From Tremella fuciformis (lineage: Eukaryota; Basidiomycota; Tremellomycetes; Tremellales; Tremellaceae): 64,000 nt of DNA. The position numbers and the translations under genes were made by a program. Shown here piece by piece: positions 21,430-37,313 of the stretch. A model generated the notes under the pieces. It did not search any database and had not been told where the DNA came from. It saw only the letters and a list, made by a program, of their open reading frames with translations. Position 1 is the stretch's first letter; every line of letters starts with the position of its first letter. The stretch covers positions 4,402,001 through 4,466,000 of the forward strand of contig CP136490.1 in the NCBI GenBank assembly GCA_032768795.1, given 5' to 3'.

Positions 21430-21742
21430 TGTCAGGACTGTGGCACTGAGACTGTGGCGGAATGAGACAAGGCCAAGTGCCACACGGCCTGACTCAGCCA
21501 ACCGCCCACTTGCCTCATCCGGGTGAAGTAGCCGAACTGCTAAATGCGGCACTCGGACTGTCTAGTATAGTTGAACGGTTTTCGAATACATATAGTAGAC
21601 ATTCGAGTAGAGAAGATCTCTAGTCGAATGTATCTCTTGTACTCTCAGTCTACTTCTAGTAACCCTACTCGATTGCATACTCCCTGCGAGGCAACCTCGA
21701 CTTCCCAGCTCGACGCGGACTATCCTACGTCCGGTCCTGACA
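21430..21742 (+). repeat. 5' LTR of element 1
   Basis: 313 bp, read as identical to 37001-37313. Perfect 9-bp terminal inverted ends TGTCAGGAC/GTCCTGACA. A TATA-like ATATAG near 21590-21595 lies about 30 nt before 21621, the predicted start of R. Confidence 0.95.
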
Positions 21743-21744
21743 TT

Positions 21745-21759
21745 AGATACATTCGACTA
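21745..21759 (+). promoter_or_regulatory. Self-priming primer-binding site of element 1
   Basis: AGATACATTCGACTA is the exact reverse complement of 21621-21635 within the 5' LTR and starts two nucleotides after the LTR. No tRNA-type TGG start is present. This is the arrangement used by the self-priming Tf1/sushi lineage, in which the 5' end of the transcript folds back as primer. Confidence 0.7.
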
Positions 21760-21790
21760 TACTCGCACTGAGTATTGCAAGTCGAGGAAC

Positions 21791-23065
21791 ATGAGTGCTT
21801 CCACTCGCCAACTACGGTCGCATGTCGACCCGGACTCGGAGGACCTCGACACTCCTACGGAGGTTGAGGAACTCCGACGTCAGATACTCGAGCTTCGCCA
21901 AGCCAAGGAGCAGAGCGACTCGGCCCTAGCGGCCGCCCGTCTCGCATTGGCCGAACGGGCCACCCCGGCAACCACTCATCACACGGGAGCCGCGCAAGGT
22001 ACACCCCTGGAAGAGATCACGGACACGGATCTCGACCACGACCACTCGCCGCTCGAGTCCGCTCAGAGGATTTCGAACGCGACGAGATCCTTCAAGGTGA
22101 ACCCCCCAGATGAATATCACGGTGACCGCGATAAGCTACCGCAATACATTACCCAGGTACGAATGTACCTTAGCATGCAAGGCGGTGGCCTGGACTCGCG
22201 GAGGCAAGTCATTTGGGCGGCATCCTACCTACGGGGAAATGCCCTTCGTTGGTGGGAACCGTACTTCAACAGGCCGAAAATCGAACAACCCCTTTTTTGC
22301 TCCGACTTGGACCATTTCATTTCCGAGTTACAGGACATGTTCGGCGACCCGGATAGACACCGAATTGCGGTGCAGCGACTCAAGAAACTGTCGCAAACCC
22401 GCACGGTCTCGGAATACTATGCACGATTCCTGGCGATCTCAGCCGATGTGGAGTATGAGGACCGTAGCCTACGAGACATGTTCGAGTCGGGTCTGCGACC
22501 CGAGATCCGCCTGGCCATAGCGAATCGCGAGCACGAGCCCAGATCCCTAAAAGAGCTGGCGGACATAGCGATTCGTCTCAATGTACAGCAGGACAGTGTC
22601 CGCAACAACTTGCTGCAGCGCAAGCCGGAGCGAGCTACCTCGAAAAGGTTCGGCGAGGCGCCGGCGACAACTCACTCTCGCGACCGCGCCGACAGACCTT
22701 CGAGGGACTACGTTCGATCCCCGAATCCGCCCTCTCGACCCCCGACCAACCAGAGATATCGGAAGGACGACGGACACTCGAGGGGTAGGATCTCGCCCAG
22801 CGAAAGACAGCGACGGATGGACAAAAACCTGTGTCTATACTGTGAGAGCCCGGATCACATTGTAGCCAACTGCCCCACGGCCCCGAAAACGCGAGCTCCT
22901 CGAAACAGCCCCGCATCGGGGGCGAACGCAGTCCGCCTCAATGGTATTAGACACGAATCACCGAACGCGAACGCCAACCTCGATCATACGAAATTCGACA
23001 AAGACGATTCGGAAAACAAGTTGGCGTACCCCAGCCCCGCGGCGGCGAGGTACGCCTCAGCGTGA
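21791..23065 (+). CDS. gag: Gag of element 1
   Basis: 424 residues from ATG 21791. It forms the particle that packages the element RNA. A coiled-coil start (PTEVEELRRQILELRQAKEQ) is followed by the retrotransposon Gag fold (region WAASYLRGNALRWWEPYF, FGDPDRHRIAVQRLKKLSQT, YYARFLAISADVEY) and one CCHC zinc knuckle CLYCESPDHIVANC near residue 351. The stop at 23063-23065 overlaps the pol frame, which is in the -1 phase. No perfect X-XXY-YYZ slippery heptamer was found in the overlap I read. Confidence 0.9.
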   Translation: MSASTRQLRSHVDPDSEDLDTPTEVEELRRQILELRQAKEQSDSALAAARLALAERATPATTHHTGAAQGTPLEEITDTDLDHDHSPLESAQRISNATRSFKVNPPDEYHGDRDKLPQYITQVRMYLSMQGGGLDSRRQVIWAASYLRGNALRWWEPYFNRPKIEQPLFCSDLDHFISELQDMFGDPDRHRIAVQRLKKLSQTRTVSEYYARFLAISADVEYEDRSLRDMFESGLRPEIRLAIANREHEPRSLKELADIAIRLNVQQDSVRNNLLQRKPERATSKRFGEAPATTHSRDRADRPSRDYVRSPNPPSRPPTNQRYRKDDGHSRGRISPSERQRRMDKNLCLYCESPDHIVANCPTAPKTRAPRNSPASGANAVRLNGIRHESPNANANLDHTKFDKDDSENKLAYPSPAAARYASA

Positions 23066-23535
23066 CCGCCACCTTCGCCGCACTCCCAATCTCGACGCCA
23101 GCTATTCCTGATACCCCAGACCTTTTCCATATACCTGTCGCGATCGCAAACAAACAATCACTAGTCTCCCGAGCGCTGCTCGACACCGGGGCCTCCCGGA
23201 ACTTTATAGAGAAAACCTACGCCATCGAGTCGAAACTCGAATTGCGCCCTTCTAGAATCAAACAGACCCTACGATTAGCGGATGGCTCCCGCAGCGCTAT
23301 CGAACAAGAGGTTACCCTCACCCTCTTGCTAGGGGAAGGGTTCCAGCCTTACACAGCTACATTTCTGGTCGCCAGACTAGATGTGGGCCCCATCATCCTT
23401 GGGGCGCCATTCTTTAAAGAAGTCAAGCCAACGCTCGACTGGGATAACCTGGCCATTCAACCTCCTCCCTCGAGATCACACCAGGGCAAGTCGGGAAAAC
23501 TAAAAGCAATCTCCCTCATCTCGGCCGAGGCATTC

Positions 23536-23970
23536 TGTCACGACGGCCACGCCCTCGACGACCTACGCACGTGACCGACACCTCTCACGTGGCCGACACG
23601 TGACCTACCTCGGGCTGGAGAACCTCGACGAGGGAGTAGACGTTGGATGAACGCGCGACGACGGGAGGCAGGCGCAGAGTCATATAGGATGCCCCGGGCG
23701 CCCGTCGTAGTTCTTCAGCACTCTCTGATTGAGTCTCATGGATCACCATTGACGATCTCACTCTCTCCGTGGCACGCAGCGTGGCTGAGTCGCACTCACG
23801 CTGTATCCTCGACGACCTTGTTACCTCGACGACCTTGTAACCTCGACGAGGATCCAACCTCGACGAGGATCCTACCTCGACATCCTCGTTTCTACCCCTT
23901 TATCCTTTATTCTTGACTCTGATATTGTGCGAGAGGGCCTCTGCCAACGGGAGAGCGCAGCATCGTGACA
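23536..23970 (+). repeat. 5' LTR of element 2
   Basis: 435 bp, read as identical to 31121-31555. It has three CACGTG sites at 23568, 23586 and 23597, a TATA-like CATATAG near 23681-23687, and direct repeats of ACCTCGACGA from about 23812 to 23885. Confidence 0.95.
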
Positions 23971-23972
23971 GT

Positions 23973-23985
23973 ATCAGAGAGTGCT
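23973..23985 (+). promoter_or_regulatory. Self-priming primer-binding site of element 2
   Basis: ATCAGAGAGTGCT is the exact reverse complement of 23717-23729 in the LTR and starts two nucleotides after the LTR, the same offset as in element 1. Position 23717 lies about 33 nt after a TATA-like box, consistent with it being the transcript 5' end. Confidence 0.7.
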
Positions 23986-24132
23986 ATTACCTCTTCGCAC
24001 AACCACGCACACCCGGGGCATATGCCCATCGAGACTCGACGTTCGACATCACTCAACCCGAACCACGAGCACCAAGCTTTACCACAGTCCCTTCGTCTTC
24101 CTCCTGCTAGCCGGTCTAGCACACCCAACAAC

Positions 24133-25101
24133 ATGGCGGATCAGGCTTCCCTCGCTCAGATCCTGCAACAGCTCGTTGCCATCGAGGCTCGACGAGCCAA
24201 CTCCCCCGCTCCCTCGACCAACGCATCATCGAGCGAGCCAAAGGCCAACCCGCCCGACACTTTCGATGGCTCAAAGCCGGAGAAACTCGAAGGATTCCTC
24301 ATGCAATGTAACATCGTCTTTCGGCTACAGCCTTCGAAGTTCACAGAGGAGTCCAAGGTCATTTACGCCATCTCCTTTCTCAGAGGATTCGTTCAGGACG
24401 CTATCCAACCTCTCGCGTCGGGAGACGAGCTCGACGAGAAGATCAGTAGCTTCCAGAGGCTGTCGAAATACTTGAGGGACAACTTCGGAGACCCCGACAT
24501 CAAGGGGACCGCTCAGAGGCGATACTTCGACTTGAAGCAGACCGGATCAGCGGCAGAGTACTTCGCGAAGCTTAGGGAGTACCTGGCGGTCTTGGGATGG
24601 GAAGCCAACGAGCAAGCTAGAGCTAGGGCGCTCGAGGGCCTCTCAGACAATCTTCGAGACGAGGTTGCTCGGACCACAGTGGAGCTGGAGACCTTCGGAG
24701 AGCTTCAGTCCTATGTCATCAAGTTGGACAACAGGCTCAGGGCAAGGGAGGCTGAGAAGAAGGCAGAGGTCAAGCGGTACGAAGAAGCTCGACGACGACC
24801 AGCCCCGACTACCCAGCAGCAAGCTGCTCTCCCTGCCTCGTCGACCTACCGACCTCTCCCGCCGATCCCGTCGACGCGTCCATCGCCAGCCCCTAGTGGC
24901 CCGCCTGGTTTCAGGTCAACGCCTCCTGGAGGTCTCGACCCTGCCGAACGTCAGAGGAGGAACGAGCAGCGCCTCTGTTTCCAATGCGGCGGAGTCGGTC
25001 ATTTCGCCAACGCCTGTGTTCCCGGGCAACGACCTCCCGTTCCTCGAGGCAGCCCTGCACCCGGCCGACCTATCGTCAAGCAGGAGGACCCAAAAGCTTG
25101 A
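24133..25101 (+). CDS. gag: Gag of element 2
   Basis: 322 residues from the ATG at 24133 (MADQASLAQILQQLVAIEAR); the frame is open upstream but that part overlaps the primer site and LTR. Gag fold blocks: PPDTFDGSKPEKLEGFL, VIYAISFLRGFVQDAIQPL and AEYFAKLREYLAVLGW. A single CCHC knuckle CFQCGGVGHFANAC lies near the C-terminus. The stop at 25099-25101 follows two codons after a slippery heptamer, and pol continues in the -1 frame. Confidence 0.9.
   Translation: MADQASLAQILQQLVAIEARRANSPAPSTNASSSEPKANPPDTFDGSKPEKLEGFLMQCNIVFRLQPSKFTEESKVIYAISFLRGFVQDAIQPLASGDELDEKISSFQRLSKYLRDNFGDPDIKGTAQRRYFDLKQTGSAAEYFAKLREYLAVLGWEANEQARARALEGLSDNLRDEVARTTVELETFGELQSYVIKLDNRLRAREAEKKAEVKRYEEARRRPAPTTQQQAALPASSTYRPLPPIPSTRPSPAPSGPPGFRSTPPGGLDPAERQRRNEQRLCFQCGGVGHFANACVPGQRPPVPRGSPAPGRPIVKQEDPKA
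25089..25095 (+). promoter_or_regulatory. Programmed -1 frameshift site of element 2
   Basis: CCCAAAA, read in the gag phase as C-CCA-AAA, fits the X-XXY-YYZ rule. It lies just before the gag stop (GCT TGA) and puts ribosomes into the pol frame reading SLRDAENIREVQ. Confidence 0.65.
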
Positions 25102-28100
25102 GGGACGCTGAGAACATACGAGAGGTCCAGCGGCCCCATCAAGACATCCTCTCGGCCACCTCCCCTCCCCATTCACCTCCCAACCCCCCTGTATCACAAT
25201 CACCTTTAATCCCGAACCTCGACGAAGAAGCGAAAGATGAGAGGGCACTGGTTGCCACGGACGGAATAGCTAGTGATGAGGAGGCATGCATTCGTGGTGA
25301 GGTTTGCTGTTTAGGCAGAGAGCAGGCTGTCGTGTCAGGAAGCGTCAATCAAGTCGACGGGGTGAAGGTGCTGCTCGACACCGGGGCCACTGGTAACTTC
25401 GTCGACTCTGTGTTCGTTGAACGGCATCACATCCCCTGTTACCCACTCCCTCGACCCCGGCAACTCCTCCTCTTTGACGGCAAACCAAGCTCAGCAGGAC
25501 AAGTAGAAAAGGGAGTGACGGGAACAGTAAAAGTCCTAGGCGGTGAAGGAAAGGAAGAGTTAGGTGTGACAACATTGGCAGGAGCGGACGTGGTGTTGGG
25601 ATATGACTGGATGAAGGAGAACGGTGTGATATTGGATGCTGGAAGGAAGAAGGCGACAAGGAAGAGGACAGGCGGGAAAGAGACGAACCAGGAGAACGGA
25701 CCACAGAACCTCGACGAGGTCTCTCGACTATCAGGAACATTGGAGACCAAGGCGGAAAGGCGACAAGGTAGACGAAGGAGCAGGCGATCGAAGGCGAACA
25801 GCATTGAGCTCCCATTCAACCGATGGGAGCAGAACCAGGGAAATACAGTCGAGCTATGCGGCACAGTGACCGAGGAGTTGAGCGAGAAGGAGGCATATAT
25901 CGACGTCCTACCCGACTATGACGAGTACGAACTCAGCCCAGAAGAGGAAGCAGCCGTGCAACATCTTGTCCCGGAGCGATATCACGAATACCTCGAGGTC
26001 TTCCATCCTCGACGAGGGGTAGAGACGCTTGCTCCAAGTAGAGAATACGACCTACGCATCACGCTTAAACCTGGAGCCGACCTACGAGTGGCCCCGCTGT
26101 ATAGCCTGAACCCAGATCAGATGGATGCGCTCGACAAGTTGCTGGATCGAGAGAGAAAGGCTGGAAGGATTCGACCCTCGAACTCGCCCTATGGGTCACC
26201 AAGCTTCTTCGTACCAAAGAAGGCCCAAGGAGAACTGAGAATGGTTGTCGACTATCGCAAGCTCAACGAGATGACGGTGCCAGACGCGTATCCGCTACCC
26301 CTGATATCCCAAGTGACCGACGACCTAGCCAAGTCGAGATACTACACGAAGCTCGACTTGCCGGGAGCATACCAGCTGCTCCGGATGGCTCCTGGACATG
26401 AGAAGTTCACAGCATTCCGTACCCCTCGAGGAATGTTCGAGTCACTGGTGGTGCGAGACGGACTTCGGAACGCGCCGAGCGTGTTCCAACACTTCTTGAA
26501 CGAAGTCCTGCACGAATTCCTGGGAAAAGGGGTCATCATCTACATCGACGACATTCTCATCCATGCGGAGAACCTCGAGGAACTTAGGAGATTGACTAAG
26601 GCGGTGCTGGAGGCGTTGCGGAAGGCTGGACTGTTTGTGAAGGCGTCTAAGTCGGAGTTCGAGCAGACTAAGGTGAAGTTCTTGGGCTTCATCATCTCGC
26701 ACGAGGGCGTCGAGGCTGACAGTGGGTATGTCGAGGGTGTTCGCAATTTCCCTACCCCTCGAAACCTACACGAAACTCGACGGTTCCTCGGTCTTGCGAG
26801 CTATTACCGACGCTTCGTACCGCAATTCTCCAAGCTCGCTGGGCCTCTCTCGCACCTCACAAGGAAGGATATCGACTTCCATTGGGGAGATGGACAGCAG
26901 TGGGCGTTCGAGGAGATCAAGAGGCGAATGAGCGAAGCACCAGTGATCGCTCACTTCAACCCGACGTTCGAGACTATCATCCAGACAGACGCCTCGGTCT
27001 ACGGATGGGGGTTCATCATCTCGCAGGTGAACTCCTCGACAGGACAAGAACACCCTGTTGCAGTCGAGTCGGGTGCCTTCTCAGGAGCGGAGCTCAACTA
27101 CACCACCACGGAGAAAGAGTTCCTCGCGATCGTCATGGCCTTCAAGCGGCGTCGGCATCTCCTTCTGCAGGTTACCTCGACGATCTTGACCGACCATCTC
27201 AACCTCACATACTGGATGGAGCCACAGAAACTCAGCCCTCGAGTTGCGAGATGGGTGGATACCCTAGCTGGCTTCTCATACAAGATCGTCTACCGACCAG
27301 GAACCAAGGCAGCCTACCCGGATGCATTATCGAGGAGAGCCGACTATATTCCACAGGGCAAGAACGCAGAACCAGAGCTAGTCCAAGCCCTGCCAAGCTT
27401 CGACAAGGAGAGTACGGCCACGTCCAGTCTGGGCTACATGTTGCGAGCGCTGGTGGAAGACGAAGAAGGAGGAGAAGACGAAGAAGGAGAAGAAGACGAG
27501 GAAGGAGAATTGAGGGGATTGTCTCGAGGAGAATTAAAGGAAGGGCAGGGCGGAGATGAGGACTTGAAGGATACATTGGAGGAGCTTGGGGAGTTAAGAG
27601 GGGAGAAGAGGATTACGAAGGAGGAGAACCCAAGGGCATGGTCATTGGCAAAAAGACTGGGCCTCGACGAGGCAAGCAAGTTCAAGTTCGACGAGGATGG
27701 CCTGCTCAGGATCAACGGGCGACTCTACATCCCGGACATCAAACAGGCAAGAGTAAAGGTCATGCGGGATCACCACGAGGGGCAATTGGCTGGACATCCT
27801 GGAGTTGCGAAGATGCTGGAGCTGGTTAGGAGGGAGTACTGTTGGTTGGGACTAAGACGGGATGTGGAGAAGTATGTGAGAGGGTGTGCAGTGTGTCAGC
27901 GGTGCAAACCGGTGCGTCAGCGTCCCCATGGACTGTTACACAGCCTGGAGATTGCTGACAGGCCATGGTCCTCGATATCCATGGACTTCATCGAGGAGCT
28001 TCCCGCCAGCTCGGGCTTCAACTCGATCCTTGTCGTCGTCGACCGGCTCACCAAATGGGCTATCTTCATCCCTACGACAACTCGGCTCAACACGGCAGGC

Positions 28101-29063
28101 CTGGTCGACCTTGTCCTCGACAATGTGGTAGCGCAGCATGGGCTACCCACGAGCATCATCTCGGATAGAGGAAGCAAGTTCACCAGCAAGCTGTGGGGGG
28201 CAATGTGCAACACCCTCGGCATCAAGGTCAGCCTCTCGACGGCCTTCCACCCTCAGACGGATGGGCAGACAGAGAGGACAAATCAAGCTCTCGAGCAATA
28301 CCTGAGGATCTTCTGCGACTACAAGCAAGACAACTGGGCTACCCTTCTCCAGCGGGCGGCGTTCGCGTACAACAACTCAATGCATTCGGCAATCATGATG
28401 ACGCCGTTTGAAGCAAATTTCGGCTACGCCCCAAGGTGGGCAGAATCCATCGTCGTCGAGGGAGAGGCTCGAGAGATCCCATCAGTCGTCGAGAAGTTTG
28501 CTTCGCTCGAGGAGGTGCACGCGTTGTGCAAGAAGAACATCGAGCTCGCCAATGAAGCATACGCTAGAGGGTATAATGCCAAGCATCAGGAGGCCCCCGA
28601 GATGAAGGTAGGGGACCAAGTGATGCTGTCGATGGAAAACATACAAACTCGACGACCCTCGAAGAAGCTCGACTTGAAATGGTGTGGACCCTACAGGATC
28701 ATCGCAAAGGCGGGCAGCGCGTACAAGCTTGAGCTGCCCGACACAATGAAGGTCAATCCAGTCTTTTCGGTGGACCGACTCAAGGTATTCGAGCCACCGA
28801 CGCTCCCAGGACAAACATACGATCCGCCAGGGCCTGTGGAAGTCGACGAGGAAGGGGAATCATTCGAGGTGAAGAGGATCATCGACTCGAGGAAAAGGAG
28901 AGGGCGATTGGAGTACAAGGTGGAGTGGCTCGGGTATGAGGGAACGGATGAGGCGACGACATGGGAACCGGCAGGGAACATTGATGGAGCCTGGGCGAGC
29001 ATTGAGAAGTTCCACAAGGAGAACCCGGAGAAGCCAGGAGGCCAAGCAGCAACCAGGGCCTAA
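25095..29063 (+). CDS. pol: Pol of element 2: protease, reverse transcriptase, RNase H, integrase, chromodomain
   Basis: About 1,322 residues, expressed as a Gag-Pol frameshift product. In order: aspartic protease (VLLDTGATGNFVDS, VVLGYDWMKENG); RT (VDYRKLNEMTVPDAYPLPL, and the intact active site IYIDDILIHA at about 26,538); RNase H (QTDASVYGWGFIISQ); a Glu/Gly-rich linker at 27,450-27,600; integrase zinc motif (H-xn-H, CAVCQRCKP), catalytic SMDF, SDRG and QTERTN; the GPYRIIAKAGSAYKLELP block; and a C-terminal chromodomain (FEVKRIIDSRKRRGRLEYKV, EWLGYEG, TTWEPAGNI). The chromodomain would direct insertion to marked chromatin. No inactivating change is seen. Confidence 0.93.
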   Translation, partial: SLRDAENIREVQRPHQDILSATSPPHSPPNPPVSQSPLIPNLDEEAKDERALVATDGIASDEEACIRGEVCCLGREQAVVSGSVNQVDGVKVLLDTGATGNFVDSVFVERHHIPCYPLPRPRQLLLFDGKPSSAGQVEKGVTGTVKVLGGEGKEELGVTTLAGADVVLGYDWMKENGVILDAGRKKATRKRTGGKETNQENGPQNLDEVSRLSGTLETKAERRQGRRRSRRSKANSIELPFNRWEQNQGNTVELCGTVTEELSEKEAYIDVLPDYDEYELSPEEEAAVQHLVPERYHEYLEVFHPRRGVETLAPSREYDLRITLKPGADLRVAPLYSLNPDQMDALDKLLDRERKAGRIRPSNSPYGSPSFFVPKKAQGELRMVVDYRKLNEMTVPDAYPLPLISQVTDDLAKSRYYTKLDLPGAYQLLRMAPGHEKFTAFRTPRGMFESLVVRDGLRNAPSVFQHFLNEVLHEFLGKGVIIYIDDILIHAENLEELRRLTKAVLEALRKAGLFVKASKSEFEQTKVKFLGFIISHEGVEADSGYVEGVRNFPTPRNLHETRRFLGLASYYRRFVPQFSKLAGPLSHLTRKDIDFHWGDGQQWAFEEIKRRMSEAPVIAHFNPTFETIIQTDASVYGWGFIISQVNSSTGQEHPVAVESGAFSGAELNYTTTEKEFLAIVMAFKRRRHLLLQVTSTILTDHLNLTYWMEPQKLSPRVARWVDTLAGFSYKIVYRPGTKAAYPDALSRRADYIPQGKNAEPELVQALPSFDKESTATSSLGYMLRALVEDEEGGEDEEGEEDEEGELRGLSRGELKEGQGGDEDLKDTLEELGELRGEKRITKEENPRAWSLAKRLGLDEASKFKFDEDGLLRINGRLYIPDIKQARVKVMRDHHEGQLAGHPGVAKMLELVRREYCWLGLRRDVEKYVRGCAVCQRCKPVRQRPHGLLHSLEIADRPWSSISMDFIEELPASSGFNSILVVVDRLTKWAIFIPTTTRLNTAGLVDLVLDNVVAQHGLPTSIISDRGSKFTSKLWGAMCNTLGIKVSLSTAFHPQTDGQTERTNQALEQYLRIFCDYKQDNWATLLQRAAFAYNNSMHSAIMMTPFEANFGYAPRWAESIVVEGEAREIPSVVEKFASLEEVHALCKKNIELANEAYARGYNAKHQEAPEMKVGDQVMLSMENIQTRRPSKKLDLKWCGPYRIIAKAGSAYKLELPDTMKVNPVFSVDRLKVFEPPTLPGQTYDPPGPVEVDEEGESFEVKRIIDSRKRRGRLEYKVEWLGYEGTDEATTWEPAGNIDGAWASIEKFHKENPEKPGGQAATRA

Positions 29064-29186
29064 GTGAAGCAGCGACAGAGCATAGGCTGAGAAGCAGTGA
29101 GCGGTGAGAGACATACATGCGGCAAGATACAAGAGTCAAGACGGCAAAAGCAAGAAGCAAGAAGTAAGAGACAAGACAAGCTACGG

Positions 29187-30780
29187 TCAAGATGTTCCCT
29201 CGAGAAACTCCCCAAGTGTCAACTCGTCGAAGTTAACACCCAAGTCACCTGCGATGTCTCGCGCCCGTGAGATAAAGTAGGTACGCATCGGTGCTTGAGT
29301 CTCTCGGCGAGCGAAGTGACTCAATTGAAATAACTCTTGCCACCGGCGGTCTGGGGCAGAGGTCGAGGTCATTGGAGCGGGTGGTGGTGGTGTTGGCGGC
29401 GGTAGCTGCATCATGGGAGGGGGTGGAGACCAGTGAGAAGTCCTTGATGGTCCGGCTTGAGGTACAGGATCGAGTCCGCCATCCCCTAGCCAACCCGTGC
29501 CAGCGTCATCCATCGGTTCCGGAGCAGGGGGAGGGAGCGGGCTCAGCCTACTCGTCGAGGTAGGATGCCCCGAGCGGAGCCTCTTGTGTGACAACGGTGA
29601 CGAAATGGGCGAGGACGAAGAGCGAGCCCGACGTTTCCCTCTTCCCTTTCCCTTCCCTTTCTTCCCAGAAGCCTTGACCGTGCCCGCTAGGTCGATGTTG
29701 GCGAGGCCAGCAGCCAAGGTCGTCGACGTGGACCGGGCTGCAGCGAGTCGGCCGGAGCGTCGGGCGCCGGGCGTGACGGGCGAGGGAGACGTGCCGCGGG
29801 CGAAGGACACCTGACGGCGCCGTGCCGATGACGAGGGGCCAGGAGTTACCGTGCCGAACGAGCAGGCCAGGGTGCCGCACGTTAAGCACTTCACTTTCTT
29901 GCCTTCCTCGACGATGCGACACGGGAGGTCGTCCGCGACACATGCCTCGCATCGCTCATCTCCCTCCAGGACTCGGATCGGCCGTGAACCCGCTTGTTGC
30001 TGAATGTCAGAGGATACCAAGTAGCTAACAATACTCACCCGGGCCCATGTCAGAGATCTGTTGTATCCCCGCTGTCCTCGGTCGGGGTAGTGGGAGCCTA
30101 CTGATCAGTTTGGGCGAAGCTTGCAGACTTTACTCACCAAAGAATGAACGGTCCAATGGCTCTGACTCCGGGACCGGCAGTCCCCATCCCTTCTTCACAT
30201 AGTATGCCTCCTCGGAGGCATTTCGCGGGTCAAATCGCCGGCTAGGAGAAATCTCCTCCTCGGACAAGCTCGACGATGCCGGAGTGTCGGGCGCTAGCTC
30301 GTCCACATCAGCCTCTACATCCAACTCCTCCTCCCCCTCTTCCTGTGGGACAGCCGCGGCAGGCGCATCGCTGAGTAGCTCCGCAGCTTGTTCGTCGGGC
30401 GGTGGGATGGCTCCGACGGCGGGGAGTGGAACAGCCTCGTCGACTGTTGGGATGTCGGCAGTCGAGGCGGCTTGCGTGGGGGATGGGAAGGGGGTGCCTT
30501 CGGGTTGGGCGGTGCCGGCACGAGATGGGGATGGGTTGGACATCGAGTCGACACTGACAGTCTCAAATCGAGAATCGGTTTCTGTGCAGAGTGTTACTGA
30601 CCCGTCTGAGTCAGAAGATGCCTCGTCTATAGTTGCCGTAGGGGTTGTAGGAGAAGGATAGGACAGCGCGTTGTCTAGAGAACTGCTGTCGAAGAGGATG
30701 TAGGGAGATGGAGGGGGCGAGCTTGTGGTGAAGGTGGATGCGTCGAGTGTTCTTGGTCTCGAGAGGTGTAGCCAGGGCAT
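29187..30780 (-). CDS. Antisense spliced accessory gene of element 2, cysteine-rich protein
   Basis: Lies between pol and the 3' LTR on the opposite strand, tail to tail with pol. Three predicted exons (30138-30780, 30039-30100, 29187-29999), with GTGAGT donors and CAG acceptors, join in frame to 505 residues. The N-terminal half is acidic, Pro/Ser-rich and disordered. The second joint leads into the cysteine cluster C-x2-C-x6-C-x10-C-x2-C-x4-C (DERCEACVADDLPC, KCLTCGTLACSFG), probably zinc-binding. A Lys/Arg-rich stretch (KKGKGKGRGKRRARSSS) looks like a nuclear signal. The C-terminus reads FISRARDIAGDLGVNFDELT. I do not recognise the family. A similar gene occupies the same place in element 1. 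Confidence 0.65.
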
Positions 30781-31120
30781 AAGGCGTGAGTTGAGGTTGA
30801 TGGTGGGGATGAGAGCGCTGACGCCCTCTCCCCCCTCTGTTTATGTCGTTTTCGAGCATCCCGCGACATGGCGACGCCCTCGAGCAACACGAGGCTACCT
30901 CGACGACGGATTGGCAGTCCTTTCACCGTTTCCTTGACGACCGCTCGACGACTTGTCGCCAGAGTTTCGCTCCCGTTACAAGCGACGTCATTCGACTGCT
31001 ATCTCGACTCATGGATCGGCAATGCGGGTGTGCTCGACGAGGACGAGGACGAGGATGAAGGCTGGAGTGGATGGAGATAGCGCGTGTCTCGCAGGAGCTC
31101 GACTTCAAAGGTGGGCAGAG

Positions 31121-31555
31121 TGTCACGACGGCCACGCCCTCGACGACCTACGCACGTGACCGACACCTCTCACGTGGCCGACACGTGACCTACCTCGGGC
31201 TGGAGAACCTCGACGAGGGAGTAGACGTTGGATGAACGCGCGACGACGGGAGGCAGGCGCAGAGTCATATAGGATGCCCCGGGCGCCCGTCGTAGTTCTT
31301 CAGCACTCTCTGATTGAGTCTCATGGATCACCATTGACGATCTCACTCTCTCCGTGGCACGCAGCGTGGCTGAGTCGCACTCACGCTGTATCCTCGACGA
31401 CCTTGTTACCTCGACGACCTTGTAACCTCGACGAGGATCCAACCTCGACGAGGATCCTACCTCGACATCCTCGTTTCTACCCCTTTATCCTTTATTCTTG
31501 ACTCTGATATTGTGCGAGAGGGCCTCTGCCAACGGGAGAGCGCAGCATCGTGACA
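31121..31555 (+). repeat. 3' LTR of element 2
   Basis: 435 bp, read as identical to the 5' copy. It is preceded by the purine-rich AAAGGTGGGCAGAG (31107-31120), the likely plus-strand primer. Confidence 0.95.
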
Positions 31556-34500
31556 CATTCGAACAGATTACGGACGAACCCAAGGGGGCGATCTACCTAC
31601 GAGCCATCTCCGTGGACCCACCTCGGATGGAGGAAGTGGTACCTACGGAATACCACGAGTTCCTGGATGTCTTCTCGGAGTCGGAGGCCACCAAGCTACC
31701 TCCTCATAGGCCTTTCGACCACCGCATCCCGCTACTCGACGGCGCTGAGCCGACATTCGGCCCGATCTACTCGCTGTCCGTGACCGAACAGGAGGCCCTC
31801 CGAGACTACTTGGATACGAACCTCAAGAAAGGCTTTATCGTACCTTCGGAGTCGCCAGCGGCCTCGCCAATTTTATTCGTAAAGAAGAAAGACGGATCCT
31901 TACGCCTCTGCGTGGACTACCGCAAGTTGAATAACATAACCGTCAAGAACCGTTATCCCCTACCGTTGATCGGAGATCTACTAGACCAACTCCGTGCGGC
32001 CACTATCTACTCAAAAATAGACCTACGTGGCGCGTACAACCTCCTCCGGATCGCCGCCGGGGAAGAATGGAAAACCGCATTCAGAACTCGGTTCGGGCTG
32101 TTCGAGTACCGAGTGATGCCATTCGGCCTCACGAATGCCCCAGCCTCATTCCAACACTTGATGAACCACATATTCCGCGATGTGCTGGACATTTTCGTCA
32201 TAGTCTATCTGGACAACATACTTATCTTCTCGAAGTCACGGAGCGAGCACGAGAGGCACGTCAAAGAAGTCCTACAACGACTGCGGAAATTCGAACTGTT
32301 CGCAAAACACGACAAGTGCCAGTTCCATACCGACTCCGTAGAGTTCCTGGGCTACATCATCGACCCGAAGGGCGTATCGATGGACCCGAACAAGGTGCGA
32401 GCGGTGTCGGCATGGCCAGCACCTCGGAACGTCAAGGAAGTCCAATCCTTCCTGGGTTTTGCAAACTTCTATCGAAGGTTCATAGCAGGGTTCGCCAAGG
32501 TAGCTAAGCCACTGCACGAACTCACTCGGAAGTCGACCCCGTTCTCCTGGTCGGAACCGCACCAGGCGGCGTTCGACCTGCTCAAGACGAAAATGACGAC
32601 CGGACCCGTCCTGAAACACTATGACCCAGACCAGGAATGCGTGGTAGAGACCGACGCGTCCGATTTCGCGATCGGGGCAGTCATATCCCAGAAAGACGGG
32701 GAGAATGGGCTGCGCCCAGTCGCATATTCGAGTCGAGTCATGTCGCCAGCCGAGTTGAACTACCCGATACACGACAAGGAATTCTTGGCAATCGTGTACG
32801 CTTTCAAGGAATGGCGACACTACCTGAAAGGTGCCCGACACCGGACACAAGTGCTCACCGACCACCGCAGCCTGGAAACCTTCTTGTCAACCAAGCAACT
32901 GACCCGACGACAGGCACGATGGGCAGAGATGATGGCAGACTTCAACTTCGAGATCTCCTATCGTTCGGGGAAGCAAAGTACTAAACCGGACGCCCTCAGT
33001 CGAAGACCGGATTACCTCCCCACCGACTCGACAGCCACGAGCCTGTCTCAGGAACTCAACGGACACAATTTCCGACCGCTCCTGTCCTCAGAACAGTTGC
33101 TACTCTCCCTACAAGTACAGCTGCTGGGCAAGACGCCGTCCGACTTGTACGAAGGGGACGACGAGCTAGGATCATTGATTGCGGACGGAAAAGTAACCCA
33201 AGACACGCAAGGATACTATAGACACTCGAAAGCATACTACTGTCCCTCGAAGTCTCGGACAGAGGTCATCGAGGCACATCACGATATAGTCTCGGCCGGT
33301 CACCCTGGACCCCGAAAGACTTATCAGGCAATTAGGCAACACTGGTGGTGGCCGAACATCAAGACGGATGTAGAGAAATCTGCGGCGGAGTGCGAGAAGT
33401 GCCAAAGAAACAAGCCCTCGAGACAGAAACCGTACGGCCTCCTTCGACCGCTCGAACCGCCACTACGACCATGGGCAGACCTGTCTGTGGACTTCATAGT
33501 CGACCTGCCCACCTCGAATACCTACGACTCCATCATGGTTGTCGTGGATCGCTTCTCGAAGATGGCAGTATTCGCGCCCTGTCACAAGTCGATCACCGCT
33601 AAAGGAATGTCCGAAATCTTCACGGATAGAGTATATACTCGTTTCGGCATACCCGACAGCATAGTGTCGGATCGTGGGAGTCTGTTCGTATCCAAATTCT
33701 GGAAAGCCTTCTGCCAAGGCCTAGGAACCAACCTGCGCTACTCGACAGCATACCACCCACAAACAGACGGACAAACCGAGAGAACGAACCAGTGGCTGGA
33801 ACAGTACCTACGCAACTATGTGAACCTCGAACAAGACAATTGGGTGCCCCTACTGCCGCACGCGGAGTTCTGCTACAATAGCACGCACCACGCCTCGCTG
33901 GGTATGAGCCCCCTGGAGGCCTACACCGGGAGAGCATATCGTACGACCCTAGTCGATCCGCCAGGAGACCTGTCCGACCTGCAAGTTCCAGCAGCCGCCG
34001 ACCGGGTTCAGCAGCTAGAACAGCTGCACCATCGAATACGAGGGAACTTGCTCAGAGCCCAAGAAGGGTGGAAGAAGCAATATGATAAGCGTCGACGTAC
34101 ACCGGACTTCCAAGTAGGGGACAAAGTCTGGCTAAATGGCAAGAACTTGCGCACGCTCCGTCCGACTAGGAAATTCGACCACCGTCACGTAGGACCGTAC
34201 TCCATACTAGAAAGGATAAACGAGAACGCATATAAACTGGACCTGCCTCCGGAATTGGTCGCCAATCGAGTTCACCCAGTCTTCAACGTAGAGCTCTTGT
34301 CGCACGTTCGTGGGGCTCGAGTCGAAGCGCAACCCGCGCTGGTCGCTCCGCCACCAGCCCCACACACTAGCGAGGAGGAGCTTTACGAAGTCGAAGGGGT
34401 ACTGAAACGAGCTCGACGATCCCGGGGTAAGGCAAGACAACTCGAGGACCAGGTCCTTGTGAAATGGAAGGGGTACCAACAACCGACCTGGCAACCAACA

Positions 34501-34661
34501 GACTCTCTAAAGAGGGACCCGCGGTTCGAGTCGTGGATGAAGGGCATCGAGGACAGCCAAGTCGAATCCCTAGTATCCGATGCAAAACGCATAAGGCGCG
34601 CCCCGCGCTGGAGAACGGAGTCGGCATGAGGTCTCTGCATAAAATACAACCTGGACTACAA

Positions 34662-36781
34662 TCACTTGCGGCGGCCGCGCTTCGTCTTGAGGGCGCCAAG
34701 CGCGGCGCGCTGTGGCGCCTTCGCCTCACTGGCAGTCTTCTCCTTGGTCTGCAGTCGGGTCGTGCGGTGCGGGATGTCGGATTCCGACTCGAGGGACTCA
34801 GCTCGGGCAGACAGAAGTCGAGTAACCGAGTGGTGCCGGTCGGGAGACGAGTGAATGGAGGGCGCGGGCGAGTCCTCCAATAGCCGCTTCAAACCACCCC
34901 CACCGACCACCGAGGGACCCGCAACCCCCTCCTCAGCGCCTTCGGCCATCGCGTCGTCCAAAGAGCTCCAGTCGAGTGTAGACACCAACGGAGGATCACC
35001 CGAGTCTAGCAGAGCGACTTGAGACTCGCCGCGGAATGCAGTCCGGTTCAAATGCTGCAAGTCAGATCTCGACAAGACCAAGACGAAATCCGACTACACT
35101 TACCTGATATTCGGAGTAATTGATTCTATAGATCTCCAAGATAGCATTACGGGCCAGACCGGGTTTCGCGTCTGCAAGTAGAGCTGCCGCCTGGCGGTGA
35201 ATTCCTGCGATAACACCCTTACGACGGACGACCTCGTCGGCAGGGAGGACGAGTTGAGCTCGGGGCCCAAGAGCGGTGTTGGGCGAAAGGGTGCAGTGTT
35301 TCGACTTGAGCATACACCCAAGACACCTATACGTCAGCGAAAATTGAGTACGGTAAGTCGAAAACATACTTCTGCGCCACATATGTCACGACGGCCACGC
35401 CCTCGACGACCTACGCACGTGACCGACACCTCTCACGTGGCCGACACGTGACCTACCTCGGGCTGGAGAACCTCGACGAGGGAGTAGACGTTGGATGAAC
35501 GCGCGACGACGGGAAGCAGGCGCAGAGTCATATAGGATGCCCCGGGCGCCCGTCGTAGTTCTTCAGCACTCTCTGATTGAGTCTCATGGATCACCATTGA
35601 CGATCTCACTCTCTCCGTGGCACGCAGCGTGGCTGAGTCGCACTCACGCTGTATCCTCGACGACCTTGTTACCTCGACGACCTTGTAACCTCGACGAGGA
35701 TCCAACCTCGACGAGGATCCTACCTCGACATCCTCGTTTCTACCCCTTTATCCTTTATTCTTGACTCTGATATTGTGCGAGAGGGCCTCTGCCAACGGGA
35801 GAGCGCAGCATCGTGACAACATACCGCCTACCATCGACCTCCACAACCGGGCAGACGCAGAGTAGACCCGAGTAGCCCGACATGGGAGGGCGATTATGGG
35901 ACACACAGGCTGCACAACGCTCCGCCCCCATCAGGACGCCCCACGAGCCGGAGTCAAGCGCTTCGAGGATGTTCGACCCGGTATCCGCGGTGTCGCCAGT
36001 ACGAGTCGAAATGTACGACTCGATCCACGAGTAGAAGGACTCGATCCTCGAGTCGTCGTGTCCAACGACCTCCGGTTCTTTCAGCGGGTACCGATACACG
36101 CGATTCAGACGCTTGACCACCAACTCTTCGCCTTCAACCCTCGGGAACACCCCACTAGGAGTTCGACCTGCCTTGGTCGGCGAAGGAGTAGGGATCGGCT
36201 GACCCGGGCTCGAGTCGGGGGCCGAGCCGAACAAGTCGCTCAGACCGACCTCAGTAGCCGAAGACACGACTTTGGCAGGCGGAGATGCGGCCTTAGGGAA
36301 GCCCAAAGGGCGATGAGCATGACCCTTTTGACTAGCCGGTGTCTCGGGAATGCTGCTCGAGCCGAAGGGTGGTTGACGAGAGATAGGAGAGGGATCCAAG
36401 ATGTGTTTCTTGGGTGAGAGACGACCGATGGGAGCAAGGGGAGCCTTGAAAGGCAATTGAATAGGCGGGAATACCGACTCAGCACGAGCAGGAGTCGACT
36501 TTACGGGAGAGGAACCCTAACAGCTTAACTTGAAGTCCGTCTACTGGCATTCGACTCACGGATTTATCCCTTTCTCGACGTAAAGCCGCCTTCCCCGCAG
36601 CAACCAGCTTGTCGACCTCAAACTTGAAAATGGCATTTTCGGGCTGCGCTTCGAGGTTCTCTCGAGCGGCCTGGAGTTGAATTCGATAGTCGTCCGCCGA
36701 GGCCGTACCGAGGTACGCCTCATCGTAGGCATCTTGTATGCCCTGCTCAACATTGAATCCGGCCAGCTCGTCGTCGACCAT
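34662..36781 (-). pseudogene. Antisense spliced accessory gene of element 1, interrupted by a solo LTR
   Basis: Sits between pol (32 nt away, tail to tail) and the 3' LTR. Exon 1 is 36560-36781 (MVDDELAGFNVEQGIQDAYD). Exon 2 starts at 36516, runs to 35819, is broken by the solo LTR and its ACATA duplication, and finishes at 35370-35378. Exon 3 is 35104-35326 and exon 4 is 34662-35054. With the insertion left out, the exon lengths sum to 1,545 nt, a multiple of three (514 residues), close to the 505 of the element-2 gene. The cysteine cluster spans exons 2 and 3: ERCAAC, LLCVC, then KCLGCMLKSKHC across the intron. C-terminus basic (TKRGRRK). Function unknown. Confidence 0.6.
35384..35818 (+). 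repeat. Solo LTR of the element-2 family
   Basis: 435 bp, same sequence as the element-2 LTRs except for one G-to-A change (GGGAAGCAGG instead of GGGAGGCAGG). It is flanked by ACATA (35379-35383 and 35819-35823), so it came from its own insertion followed by LTR-LTR recombination. Confidence 0.95.
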
Positions 36782-36982
36782 GATGAGAACAGTACGAAAG
36801 ACGACTCAAGGAAGACGAAGTCCGGACACAACAACCAGAACAACAACTTGCATGAAAGGGTAAACAACGGCGTCTCTCGGGCTTACGGGCGTGGCATCTA
36901 CCTCAACGAACCGAACACACAGTGCCAAAGGACGCAACATCGAATAAAGGATGTCAACAACCGAGGATGTCGGGTCGACATC

Positions 36983-36996
36983 AAAGAAGAGGGGGG
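36983..36996 (+). promoter_or_regulatory. Polypurine tract of element 1
   Basis: AAAGAAGAGGGGGG ends four nucleotides before the 3' LTR and is the likely primer for plus-strand synthesis. Confidence 0.65.
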
Positions 36997-37000
36997 CGAC

Positions 37001-37313
37001 TGTCAGGACTGTGGCACTGAGACTGTGGCGGAATGAGACAAGGCCAAGTGCCACACGGCCTGACTCAGCCAACCGCCCACTTGCCTCATCCGGGTGAAGT
37101 AGCCGAACTGCTAAATGCGGCACTCGGACTGTCTAGTATAGTTGAACGGTTTTCGAATACATATAGTAGACATTCGAGTAGAGAAGATCTCTAGTCGAAT
37201 GTATCTCTTGTACTCTCAGTCTACTTCTAGTAACCCTACTCGATTGCATACTCCCTGCGAGGCAACCTCGACTTCCCAGCTCGACGCGGACTATCCTACG
37301 TCCGGTCCTGACA
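37001..37313 (+). repeat. 3' LTR of element 1
   Basis: 313 bp, read as identical to 21430-21742. It is followed by the AGACT target duplication at 37314-37318. Confidence 0.95.

What the first reader, a model, noticed from the sequence alone, without database searches (positions are those of the whole stretch)
29187..36781. Two nested chromoviruses each carry an antisense, intron-containing gene for a cysteine-rich protein
Between pol and the 3' LTR both elements have a minus-strand multi-exon gene with good splice signals. The predicted products are 505 residues (29187-30780) and 514 residues (34662-36781 with the solo LTR left out), and in both the exon lengths add to a multiple of three. 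Each has an ERC-x2-C start and a KCL-x-C block of a six- or seven-cysteine cluster. Placing introns antisense lets a retrotransposon keep them, because they are not recognised in the sense genomic RNA. This looks like a transmissible accessory gene, perhaps a nuclear zinc protein acting on silencing or on element expression. I know of antisense frames in some plant elements but not of this family.
Basis: partly seen in the sequence, partly recalled or inferred. Interest (0 to 1): 0.85.

Follow-up and report, generated by a model that had tools for sequence, protein, structure and literature searches.

The report
Backwards spliced gene in fungal retrotransposons
Many Ty3/gypsy-type jumping genes in this fungal genome carry an extra gene written backwards, with introns, for a cysteine-rich and probably nuclear protein that selection keeps intact; backwards extra genes are known from a few plant and fungal elements, but our searches found no report of this protein family.

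Summary
Outer element A and inner element B are nested Ty3/gypsy elements, each with a minus-strand spliced gene between pol and the 3' LTR (505 and 514 codons, as stated). In the window's own A copy a solo B LTR breaks the gene inside a coding exon; 14 of 16 other A copies examined have it whole, as do 18 of 19 other B copies.

The genes are real by selection: distinct changes per site, nonsynonymous over synonymous, are 0.19-0.30 (B) and 0.19 (A). Family C shares both B introns in position and phase. A cluster Cys-x2-Cys-x6-Cys...Cys-x2-Cys-x3-6-Cys recurs in families B-G; A's is a stretched form, and 0 of 100 cysteine-keeping shuffles reach the A versus B-E profile score. Of 133 pol 3' ends listed, 113 have such an antisense cluster within 3 kb.

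Expression, zinc binding, function and occurrence in other species are untested. I favour a nuclear zinc-binding regulator of the element (about 0.4), like HTLV HBZ in layout, not in family. Antisense accessory genes are known (Boty brtn, Grande gene23, Retand), so this is a new variant of a known kind.

The parts
21430..37313 (+). outer Ty3/gypsy element A, LTRs 21430-21742 and 37001-37313, target duplication AGACT; interrupted by B and by a solo B LTR
   Evidence: Pfam domains
23536..31555 (+). inner Ty3/gypsy element B, LTRs 23536-23970 and 31121-31555, target duplication CATTC
   Evidence: Pfam domains
35384..35818 (+). solo LTR of the B family, target duplication ACATA, inside coding exon 2 of A's antisense gene
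30138..30780 (-). B antisense gene, exon 1 (ATG at 30780)
   Evidence: N:S of distinct changes 36:42, ratio 0.30
30101..30137 (-). B antisense intron 1, 37 nt, GTGAGT...CTGATCAG, phase 1
30039..30100 (-). B antisense gene, exon 2 (62 nt)
   Evidence: same length class and ends as exon 3 (56 nt) of family C
30000..30038 (-). B antisense intron 2, 39 nt, GTGAGT...CTGACATTCAG, phase 0
29187..29999 (-). B antisense gene, exon 3, with the cysteine cluster, a basic stretch and the C-terminal helical part
   Evidence: N:S 33:63, ratio 0.19
29862..29951 (-). six-cysteine cluster C-x2-C-x6-C-x10-C-x2-C-x4-C
   Evidence: kept in all 19 whole B copies
36560..36781 (-). A antisense gene, exon 1 (ATG at 36781)
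   Evidence: model from L024; positions in the window follow from exon lengths
36517..36559 (-). A antisense intron 1, 43 nt, phase 0
35819..36516 (-). A antisense gene, exon 2 as far as the solo LTR; holds the first half of the cysteine cluster
35370..35383 (-). rest of A exon 2 on the far side of the solo LTR (with the duplicated ACATA)
   Evidence: read
35327..35369 (-). A antisense intron 2, 43 nt, phase 2
35104..35326 (-). A antisense gene, exon 3, with the KC-x2-C-x6-C half of the cluster
35055..35103 (-). A antisense intron 3, 49 nt
34662..35054 (-). A antisense gene, exon 4, ends in a basic tail
24897..29063 (+). B pol frame (protease, RT, RNase H, integrase, chromodomain); tail-to-tail with the antisense gene, 123 bp between them
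31555..34629 (+). A pol frame downstream of the B insertion; 32 bp between its stop and the end of the antisense gene

Best explanation
Each element carries a third gene beside gag and pol: an antisense, spliced accessory gene between pol and the 3' LTR, passed on with the element. Shown by sequence: frames, introns, selection on the protein, one shared cysteine cluster in at least seven chromovirus families of this genome. Inferred: the minus-strand transcript starts in the spacer next to the 3' LTR or in that LTR; its introns persist because the sense genomic RNA, the template for reverse transcription, shows no splice sites there; the protein binds zinc through the cluster, enters the nucleus by its basic stretches, and binds the element's own DNA (LTR or spacer) or its chromatin, through which it tunes the element's transcription in trans, as HBZ does for HTLV-1. 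That it is a real, selected antisense gene I hold at about 0.95; that it is a nuclear zinc-binding protein about 0.65; that its job is to regulate the element's own transcription about 0.4.
For: Whole frames with ATG, stop and GT-AG introns in 18 of 19 other B copies, 14 of 16 other A copies and 14 of 20 distinct C copies (L041 and L061 are one place). Selection: B N:S 36:42 and 33:63 distinct changes in exons 1 and 3, ratios 0.30 and 0.19, p 1e-7 and 3e-15; A 107:193 over 15 other copies, ratio 0.19; C 61:97 over L043, L045, L046, ratio 0.24. In the true frame pooled pN/pS is 0.14 (exon 3), in the two other minus frames 2.5 and 1.7. B introns 1 and 2 and C introns 2 and 3 agree in place and phase. 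Profile comparison A versus B-E: score 44.8, E 1e-6; 100 shuffles that keep the cysteines reach at most 27; F, G and L079 likewise 0 of 40 each. Antisense cluster within 3 kb of 96 of 116 and 17 of 17 pol ends listed. Basic runs in A, B and C proteins. In the B model the cluster and a C-terminal three-helix part are the confident pieces.
Against: No transcript, protein or binding data. No Pfam family at the cut-off, PF00172 (Zn2Cys6) included. No fold match of note. The protein in B is acidic overall (51 K+R, 63 D+E) and its cluster has few basic residues, unlike the first loop of Gal4-type clusters (recalled). Near-identical C copies (11 N: 9 S, p 0.08) and the last exon of D (6 N: 3 S) give no sign of selection; L064 (ratio 0.80) is a decayed copy. 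Codon usage did not set the frame apart.
Confidence: 0.5

Rival explanations
1. Silencing suppressor: the protein acts on host RNAi or heterochromatin so that the element escapes silencing.
For: The genome has an Argonaute-type Piwi domain, and B, A, C and F families are young and numerous. The protein evolves faster than pol (dN/dS 0.1-0.2 against about 0.01-0.05 in B), as arms-race proteins do.
Against: No resemblance to a known suppressor was found; the cysteine cluster is the slowest part, the rest mostly disordered, which fits other roles too. Silencing in this host was not examined.
Confidence: 0.2
2. Integration or nuclear-entry cofactor: the protein joins the pre-integration complex or helps the chromodomain integrase choose sites.
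For: Found next to chromodomain pols and inherited with them; basic stretches. Vicient and Casacuberta raise this for plant antisense ORFs (PMC7264820, parts 1 and 2 of 3 seen).
Against: An antisense gene is made at a different time and place from Gag-Pol, awkward for a particle component. At least one family (L077) shows no cluster in the 2.6 kb past pol.
Confidence: 0.15
3. The antisense RNA, not a protein, is the product: it pairs with the genomic RNA and limits copy number.
For: Antisense transcripts can act so in other elements (review PMC7264820). The 340 bp between the ATG and the LTR vary less than third codon positions (24 of 340 against 99 of 506 columns).
Against: Selection on amino acids, in two frames joined across introns, and a protein cluster conserved where DNA is not. 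RNA action may come in addition.
Confidence: 0.07
4. Nucleic-acid chaperone: the zinc protein coats element RNA or cDNA, doubling Gag's nucleocapsid.
For: Cysteine cluster plus basic stretch in B.
Against: Both gags already hold a zinc-knuckle-like match (below Pfam's cut-off); the cluster is not a CCHC knuckle.
Confidence: 0.08
5. Captured host gene or chance frame without use to the element.
For: Cluster genes without a listed pol beside them exist, e.g. the subtelomeric L079, and 16 of the 108 places compared had none.
Against: Long shared history over families whose pols are only about 40-70% identical, and purifying selection in many copies.
Confidence: 0.05

Closest known systems
brtn, antisense gene of Boty-like elements of Botrytis cinerea (Zhao et al. 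2011, Virology; original paper not seen)
   Same: Fungal Ty3/gypsy element with gag-pol ending in a chromodomain, additional gene antisense to it (passages in PMC4227169, PMC8365987; figure legend in PMC7264820).
   Different: Whether brtn has introns, a cysteine cluster or any kinship could not be tested: its sequence was not at hand. Host is an ascomycete.
Antisense ORFs between pol and 3' LTR of plant elements: Grande gene23, RIRE2, Retand (Transposase 28 domain, PF04195)
   Same: Same place and orientation, kept in most copies, nuclear protein in Grande, own promoter in Grande (PMC7264820; PMC11963269 passages).
   Different: Retand elements are described as non-chromoviruses; no PF04195 match here; here introns and a cysteine cluster.
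HBZ and APH-2/3/4 of HTLV
   Same: Antisense, spliced, near the 3' LTR, nuclear regulators of the provirus (PMC10186651 passages).
   Different: HBZ is a bZIP protein; no bZIP match here. No kinship claimed: a likeness of layout only.
Fungal Zn(II)2Cys6 cluster (PF00172)
   Same: First half C-x2-C-x6-C, second half C-x2-C-x6-C in G and A; cluster followed by helical stretches in B by model.
   Different: No Pfam match up to E 10; last loop 3-5 residues in B-F; fold not established.
DUF3716 (PF12511), fungal domain of unknown function
   Same: Matches the second cluster of L075 (G2), 17.1 bits, and L079, 17.9 bits, both below the cut-off of 22.
   Different: No match for A to F; G2 itself did not clear the shuffle control against B-E (1 of 40).

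Membership tests
chromovirus (Ty3/gypsy with chromodomain) | RT, RNase H, integrase in gypsy order, then a chromodomain | tested here: met
   B: Chromo E 3e-11, above cut-off; A: Chromo 19.4 bits, below its cut-off of 25.1, so weaker for A
antisense accessory gene of LTR retrotransposons (aORF-3R) | frame between pol and 3' LTR, antisense, in most copies | tested here: met
antisense accessory gene of LTR retrotransposons (aORF-3R) | transcribed on the minus strand | not testable with these tools
   no RNA data
brtn family | sequence kinship with brtn | not tested
Retand type | Transposase 28 domain (PF04195) | tested here: not met
   Pfam-A scans
HBZ | bZIP domain | tested here: not met
   no bZIP family in Pfam-A scans
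Zn(II)2Cys6 (PF00172) | profile match | tested here: not met
   none up to E 10 (up to 0.1); HMMER's filters drop weak matches
Zn(II)2Cys6 (PF00172) | spacing C-x2-C-x6-C-x5..12-C-x2-C-x6..8-C (recalled) | tested here: not met
   B-F have x3-x5 in the last loop; G has x6 there but about x20 in the middle; A has x15 in place of x6
Zn(II)2Cys6 (PF00172) | binuclear zinc cluster fold | tested here: inconclusive
   60-residue model, mean pLDDT 69.8; no significant match
DUF3716 (PF12511) | match at the curated cut-off (22 bits) | tested here: not met
   17.1 bits G2, 17.9 bits L079; the one place over it, L078 at 22.3 with neighbours, did not read as a cluster gene in the form seen here

The most novel reading that the evidence does not exclude
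The chromoviruses of this fungus share an ancient family of element-borne, antisense, intron-bearing zinc-cluster transcription factors, each recognising its own family's LTR: an HBZ-like layer of self-control reached independently of retroviruses, and so general in the genome that gag-pol-plus-antisense-regulator is the standard plan of these elements rather than an oddity.
Probability: 0.3. Interest if true: 0.85.

Novelty: new variant of a known kind. Interest (0 to 1): 0.62.

Why it matters
It makes the long-open question of what antisense ORFs of LTR retrotransposons do directly testable: here are several families in one small haploid-size genome, with many near-identical copies, a compact domain to mutate and introns that mark the spliced RNA. 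If the proteins regulate or protect their elements, annotation of fungal genomes is also affected, since such genes look like host genes with introns and no homologues and will be counted as orphan or lineage-specific genes.

Tried and rejected
Homologues elsewhere: three protein searches gave nothing beyond the element itself: B spliced protein, region 200-330, none at E 0.01; profile A1, one protein, P0001, identical to family C; A exon 2, none at E 0.1. That database works with short shared words and single-exon predictions, so absence from other fungi is not shown. A scan of viral contigs with profile A1 did not run. PDB sequence search: best E 0.057, not a cysteine-cluster match.

Codon usage: did not separate true from false frames. 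The plus-strand frame that shares third positions gives pN/pS 0.21 (exon 3) and 0.34 (exon 1), nearly as low as the true frame (0.14, 0.25); it holds 7 and 3 stops and is rejected for that.

Papers: ten searches of an open-licence library found antisense genes in plant elements, Boty and retroviruses but no cysteine-cluster antisense gene in fungal elements; subscription papers are mostly not held. Passages only were seen of PMC8365987, PMC11963269, PMC5408684, PMC5389150, PMC11185503, PMC12477816, PMC12810828, PMC10186651 and PMC4227169; parts 1 and 2 of 3 of PMC7264820. The rotifer, Cryptococcus and Ectocarpus papers did not describe such a gene in the passages shown.

Families without a cluster seen: L077 none in 2.6 kb; L076 begins another element and cannot tell; 20 of 116 pol ends had none from the queries used, which do not exclude more divergent ones.
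Full report
What is there. Element A (LTRs 21430-21742, 37001-37313) holds element B (LTRs 23536-23970, 31121-31555) in its pol and a solo B LTR (35384-35818) near its 3' end; target duplications are AGACT, CATTC and ACATA, and the LTR pairs are identical, so the insertions are young. Both have gag, protease, RT, RNase H, integrase and a C-terminal chromodomain match, which for A is below Pfam's cut-off.

The antisense genes. In both, the stretch between pol and the 3' LTR holds a minus-strand gene, tail to tail with pol. B: three exons, 505 codons, introns of 37 and 39 nt with GTGAGT donors, CTGAT or CTGAC branch-like sites and CAG acceptors. A, modelled on uninterrupted copy L024: four exons, 514 codons, introns of 43, 43 and 49 nt. 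Three introns of the Hsp90 gene in the window are 47, 46 and 42 nt with the same look. In the window's A copy the solo LTR interrupts coding exon 2, so that copy is broken.

Copies. The last exon of B has 65 matches in the genome, the first 20 of them near-identical and open over the whole 305-residue frame; A's exon 2 has 18 matches, 17 of them without stops. Judged with all their bases in place, 18 of 19 other B copies, 14 of 16 other A copies and 14 of 20 distinct C copies are whole from ATG to stop with GT-AG introns (the table counts the C place L041/L061 twice and the reference rows). Broken ones: B L021 (514-base insertion in exon 1); A L037 (20-base insertion in exon 3) and L039 (start of the gene missing); C L042, L043, L044, L046, L047, L064. 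The decayed B relative L048 is also broken. Both B introns keep GT and AG in 21 of 21 rows, L048 included; donors vary only as GTGAGT, GTAAGT or GTTAGT.

Selection. Counting each distinct change once among B copies (L048 left out), exon 1 has 36 nonsynonymous and 42 synonymous changes, exon 3 has 33 and 63; per site the ratios are 0.30 and 0.19 (p 1e-7 and 3e-15; these treat changes as independent). In the other two minus-strand frames of exon 3 the pooled ratio is 2.5 and 1.7. The plus-strand frame that shares the wobble position reaches 0.21 but holds 7 stops. For A, 15 other copies give 107 and 193, ratio 0.19; the 12 closest give 17 and 29, ratio 0.20. For C, the divergent copies L043, L045 and L046 give 61 and 97, ratio 0.24; the near-identical copies give 11 and 9, ratio 0.47, p 0.08, and decayed L064 0.80. 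D's last exon (6 and 3) tells nothing; its middle exon gives 0 and 4. B's pol tail is more constrained than the antisense gene, except in L004, where a run of 26 amino-acid changes in the pol tail suggests a local frame break that was not examined.

A wider family. Family C (pol tail about 72% identical to B) has a four-exon antisense gene whose introns 2 and 3 match B's introns 1 and 2 in place and phase: phase 1 after the ...FF of LDRSFF/LDRAFF, phase 0 after ...TWAR/PWAL. Families D (63-64%), E (60%), F (45-46%) and G (45-46%) also have a cysteine-cluster exon antisense to pol. Cluster forms: B C-x2-C-x6-C-x10-C-x2-C-x4-C; C the same with x11 and x5; D x10 and x4; E x8 and x4; F x8 and x3; G about x20 and x6; A C-x2-C-x15-C-x-C...C-x2-C-x6-C. 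All whole B, A and C copies keep the pattern. After the cluster B, C, D and E share a short C-terminal helical stretch by eye.

Is A's protein kin? Profile comparison of A's cluster with B-E gives score 44.8, probability 91%, E 1e-6. With cysteines fixed and the other core columns shuffled, the mean score is 15.5 and the highest 27.0; 0 of 100 reach the real one. F, G and the subtelomeric L079 pass the same kind of control (0 of 40 each); a second cluster beside G, G2, does not (1 of 40). A's introns are not those of B and C.

How general. The search with B's pol tail scored 116 places (of 329 candidates). Within 3 kb downstream, on the opposite strand, lies a cluster exon for 24 of 24 B-like, 30 of 32 C-like, 15 of 15 D/E-like and 23 of 45 more distant places, in all 92 of 116; 4 same-strand cases were not looked into, and 16 of 108 cluster places had no listed pol. 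A query with L079 adds 4 of the 24 remaining. For A, 17 of 17 pol ends have the gene, at 749-1192 bp. So 113 of 133 listed pol ends have it. One family looked at directly, L077, shows none in 2.6 kb; another, L076, could not be judged.

Mechanism. Shown: a protein-coding, antisense, intron-bearing gene kept by selection and spread over the element families. Inferred: zinc binding by the cluster; nuclear entry by basic runs (KKGKGKGRGKRR in B, KRGRR at the end of A, RRRRR and KRRR in C); a promoter in the spacer or 3' LTR. The spacer upstream of B's ATG varies in 24 of 340 columns against 99 of 506 third codon positions; but the LTRs are as uniform, so recent exchange among copies could also explain this. 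The best-supported working picture is a nuclear factor that acts in trans on the element's own expression, after the plan of HBZ and of the roles proposed for plant antisense ORFs (PMC7264820, PMC11963269, PMC10186651). The silencing-suppressor rival gains from an Argonaute-type gene in the genome and from the protein's faster evolution. No tool here can choose between them.

Known or new. Antisense accessory genes are known in plants and in Boty-like elements of Botrytis, which have a chromodomain and brtn (passages). No Pfam or NCBIfam family matches at its cut-off; the nearest are sub-threshold DUF3716 matches for G2 and L079 only. Ten literature searches of an open-licence library found no cysteine-cluster antisense gene in fungal elements. 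Hence: new variant of a known kind. Occurrence in other species was not established.

Noticed in passing
L075:1233-1670 and 2125-2631 (C5:1526001-1528900): Two different cysteine-cluster frames stand in a row antisense to a family G pol; the second (G2) matches DUF3716 below the cut-off.
   Followed up: partly
L079 (C3, about 10.1 kb from the contig end): A cluster gene without a pol in the 3.1 kb fetched, near a contig end; relatives of it (32-38% identical) lie antisense to four distant pols.
   Followed up: partly
window:30781-31120 and B LTRs: Spacer and LTRs vary less among B copies than third codon positions of the antisense gene (24/340 against 99/506; LTR copies 99-100% identical): control sequences under constraint, or exchange among copies.
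   Followed up: no
L048 (C11:88901-92500): An old B relative with pieces of antisense frame still open although a cluster cysteine is lost and the gene as a whole is broken.
   Followed up: partly
L004 (C1:7595483-7599397): Pol tail differs from the other B copies by a run of amino-acid changes (26 nonsynonymous), as after a local frame break, while the antisense gene is whole.
   Followed up: no
G000:C1:6108748-6109353: Piwi domain (E 2e-56): the host seems to have an Argonaute.
   Followed up: no
L042 (C5:399001-403800): A decayed C copy and a D element stand next to each other, so elements cluster in places.
   Followed up: no
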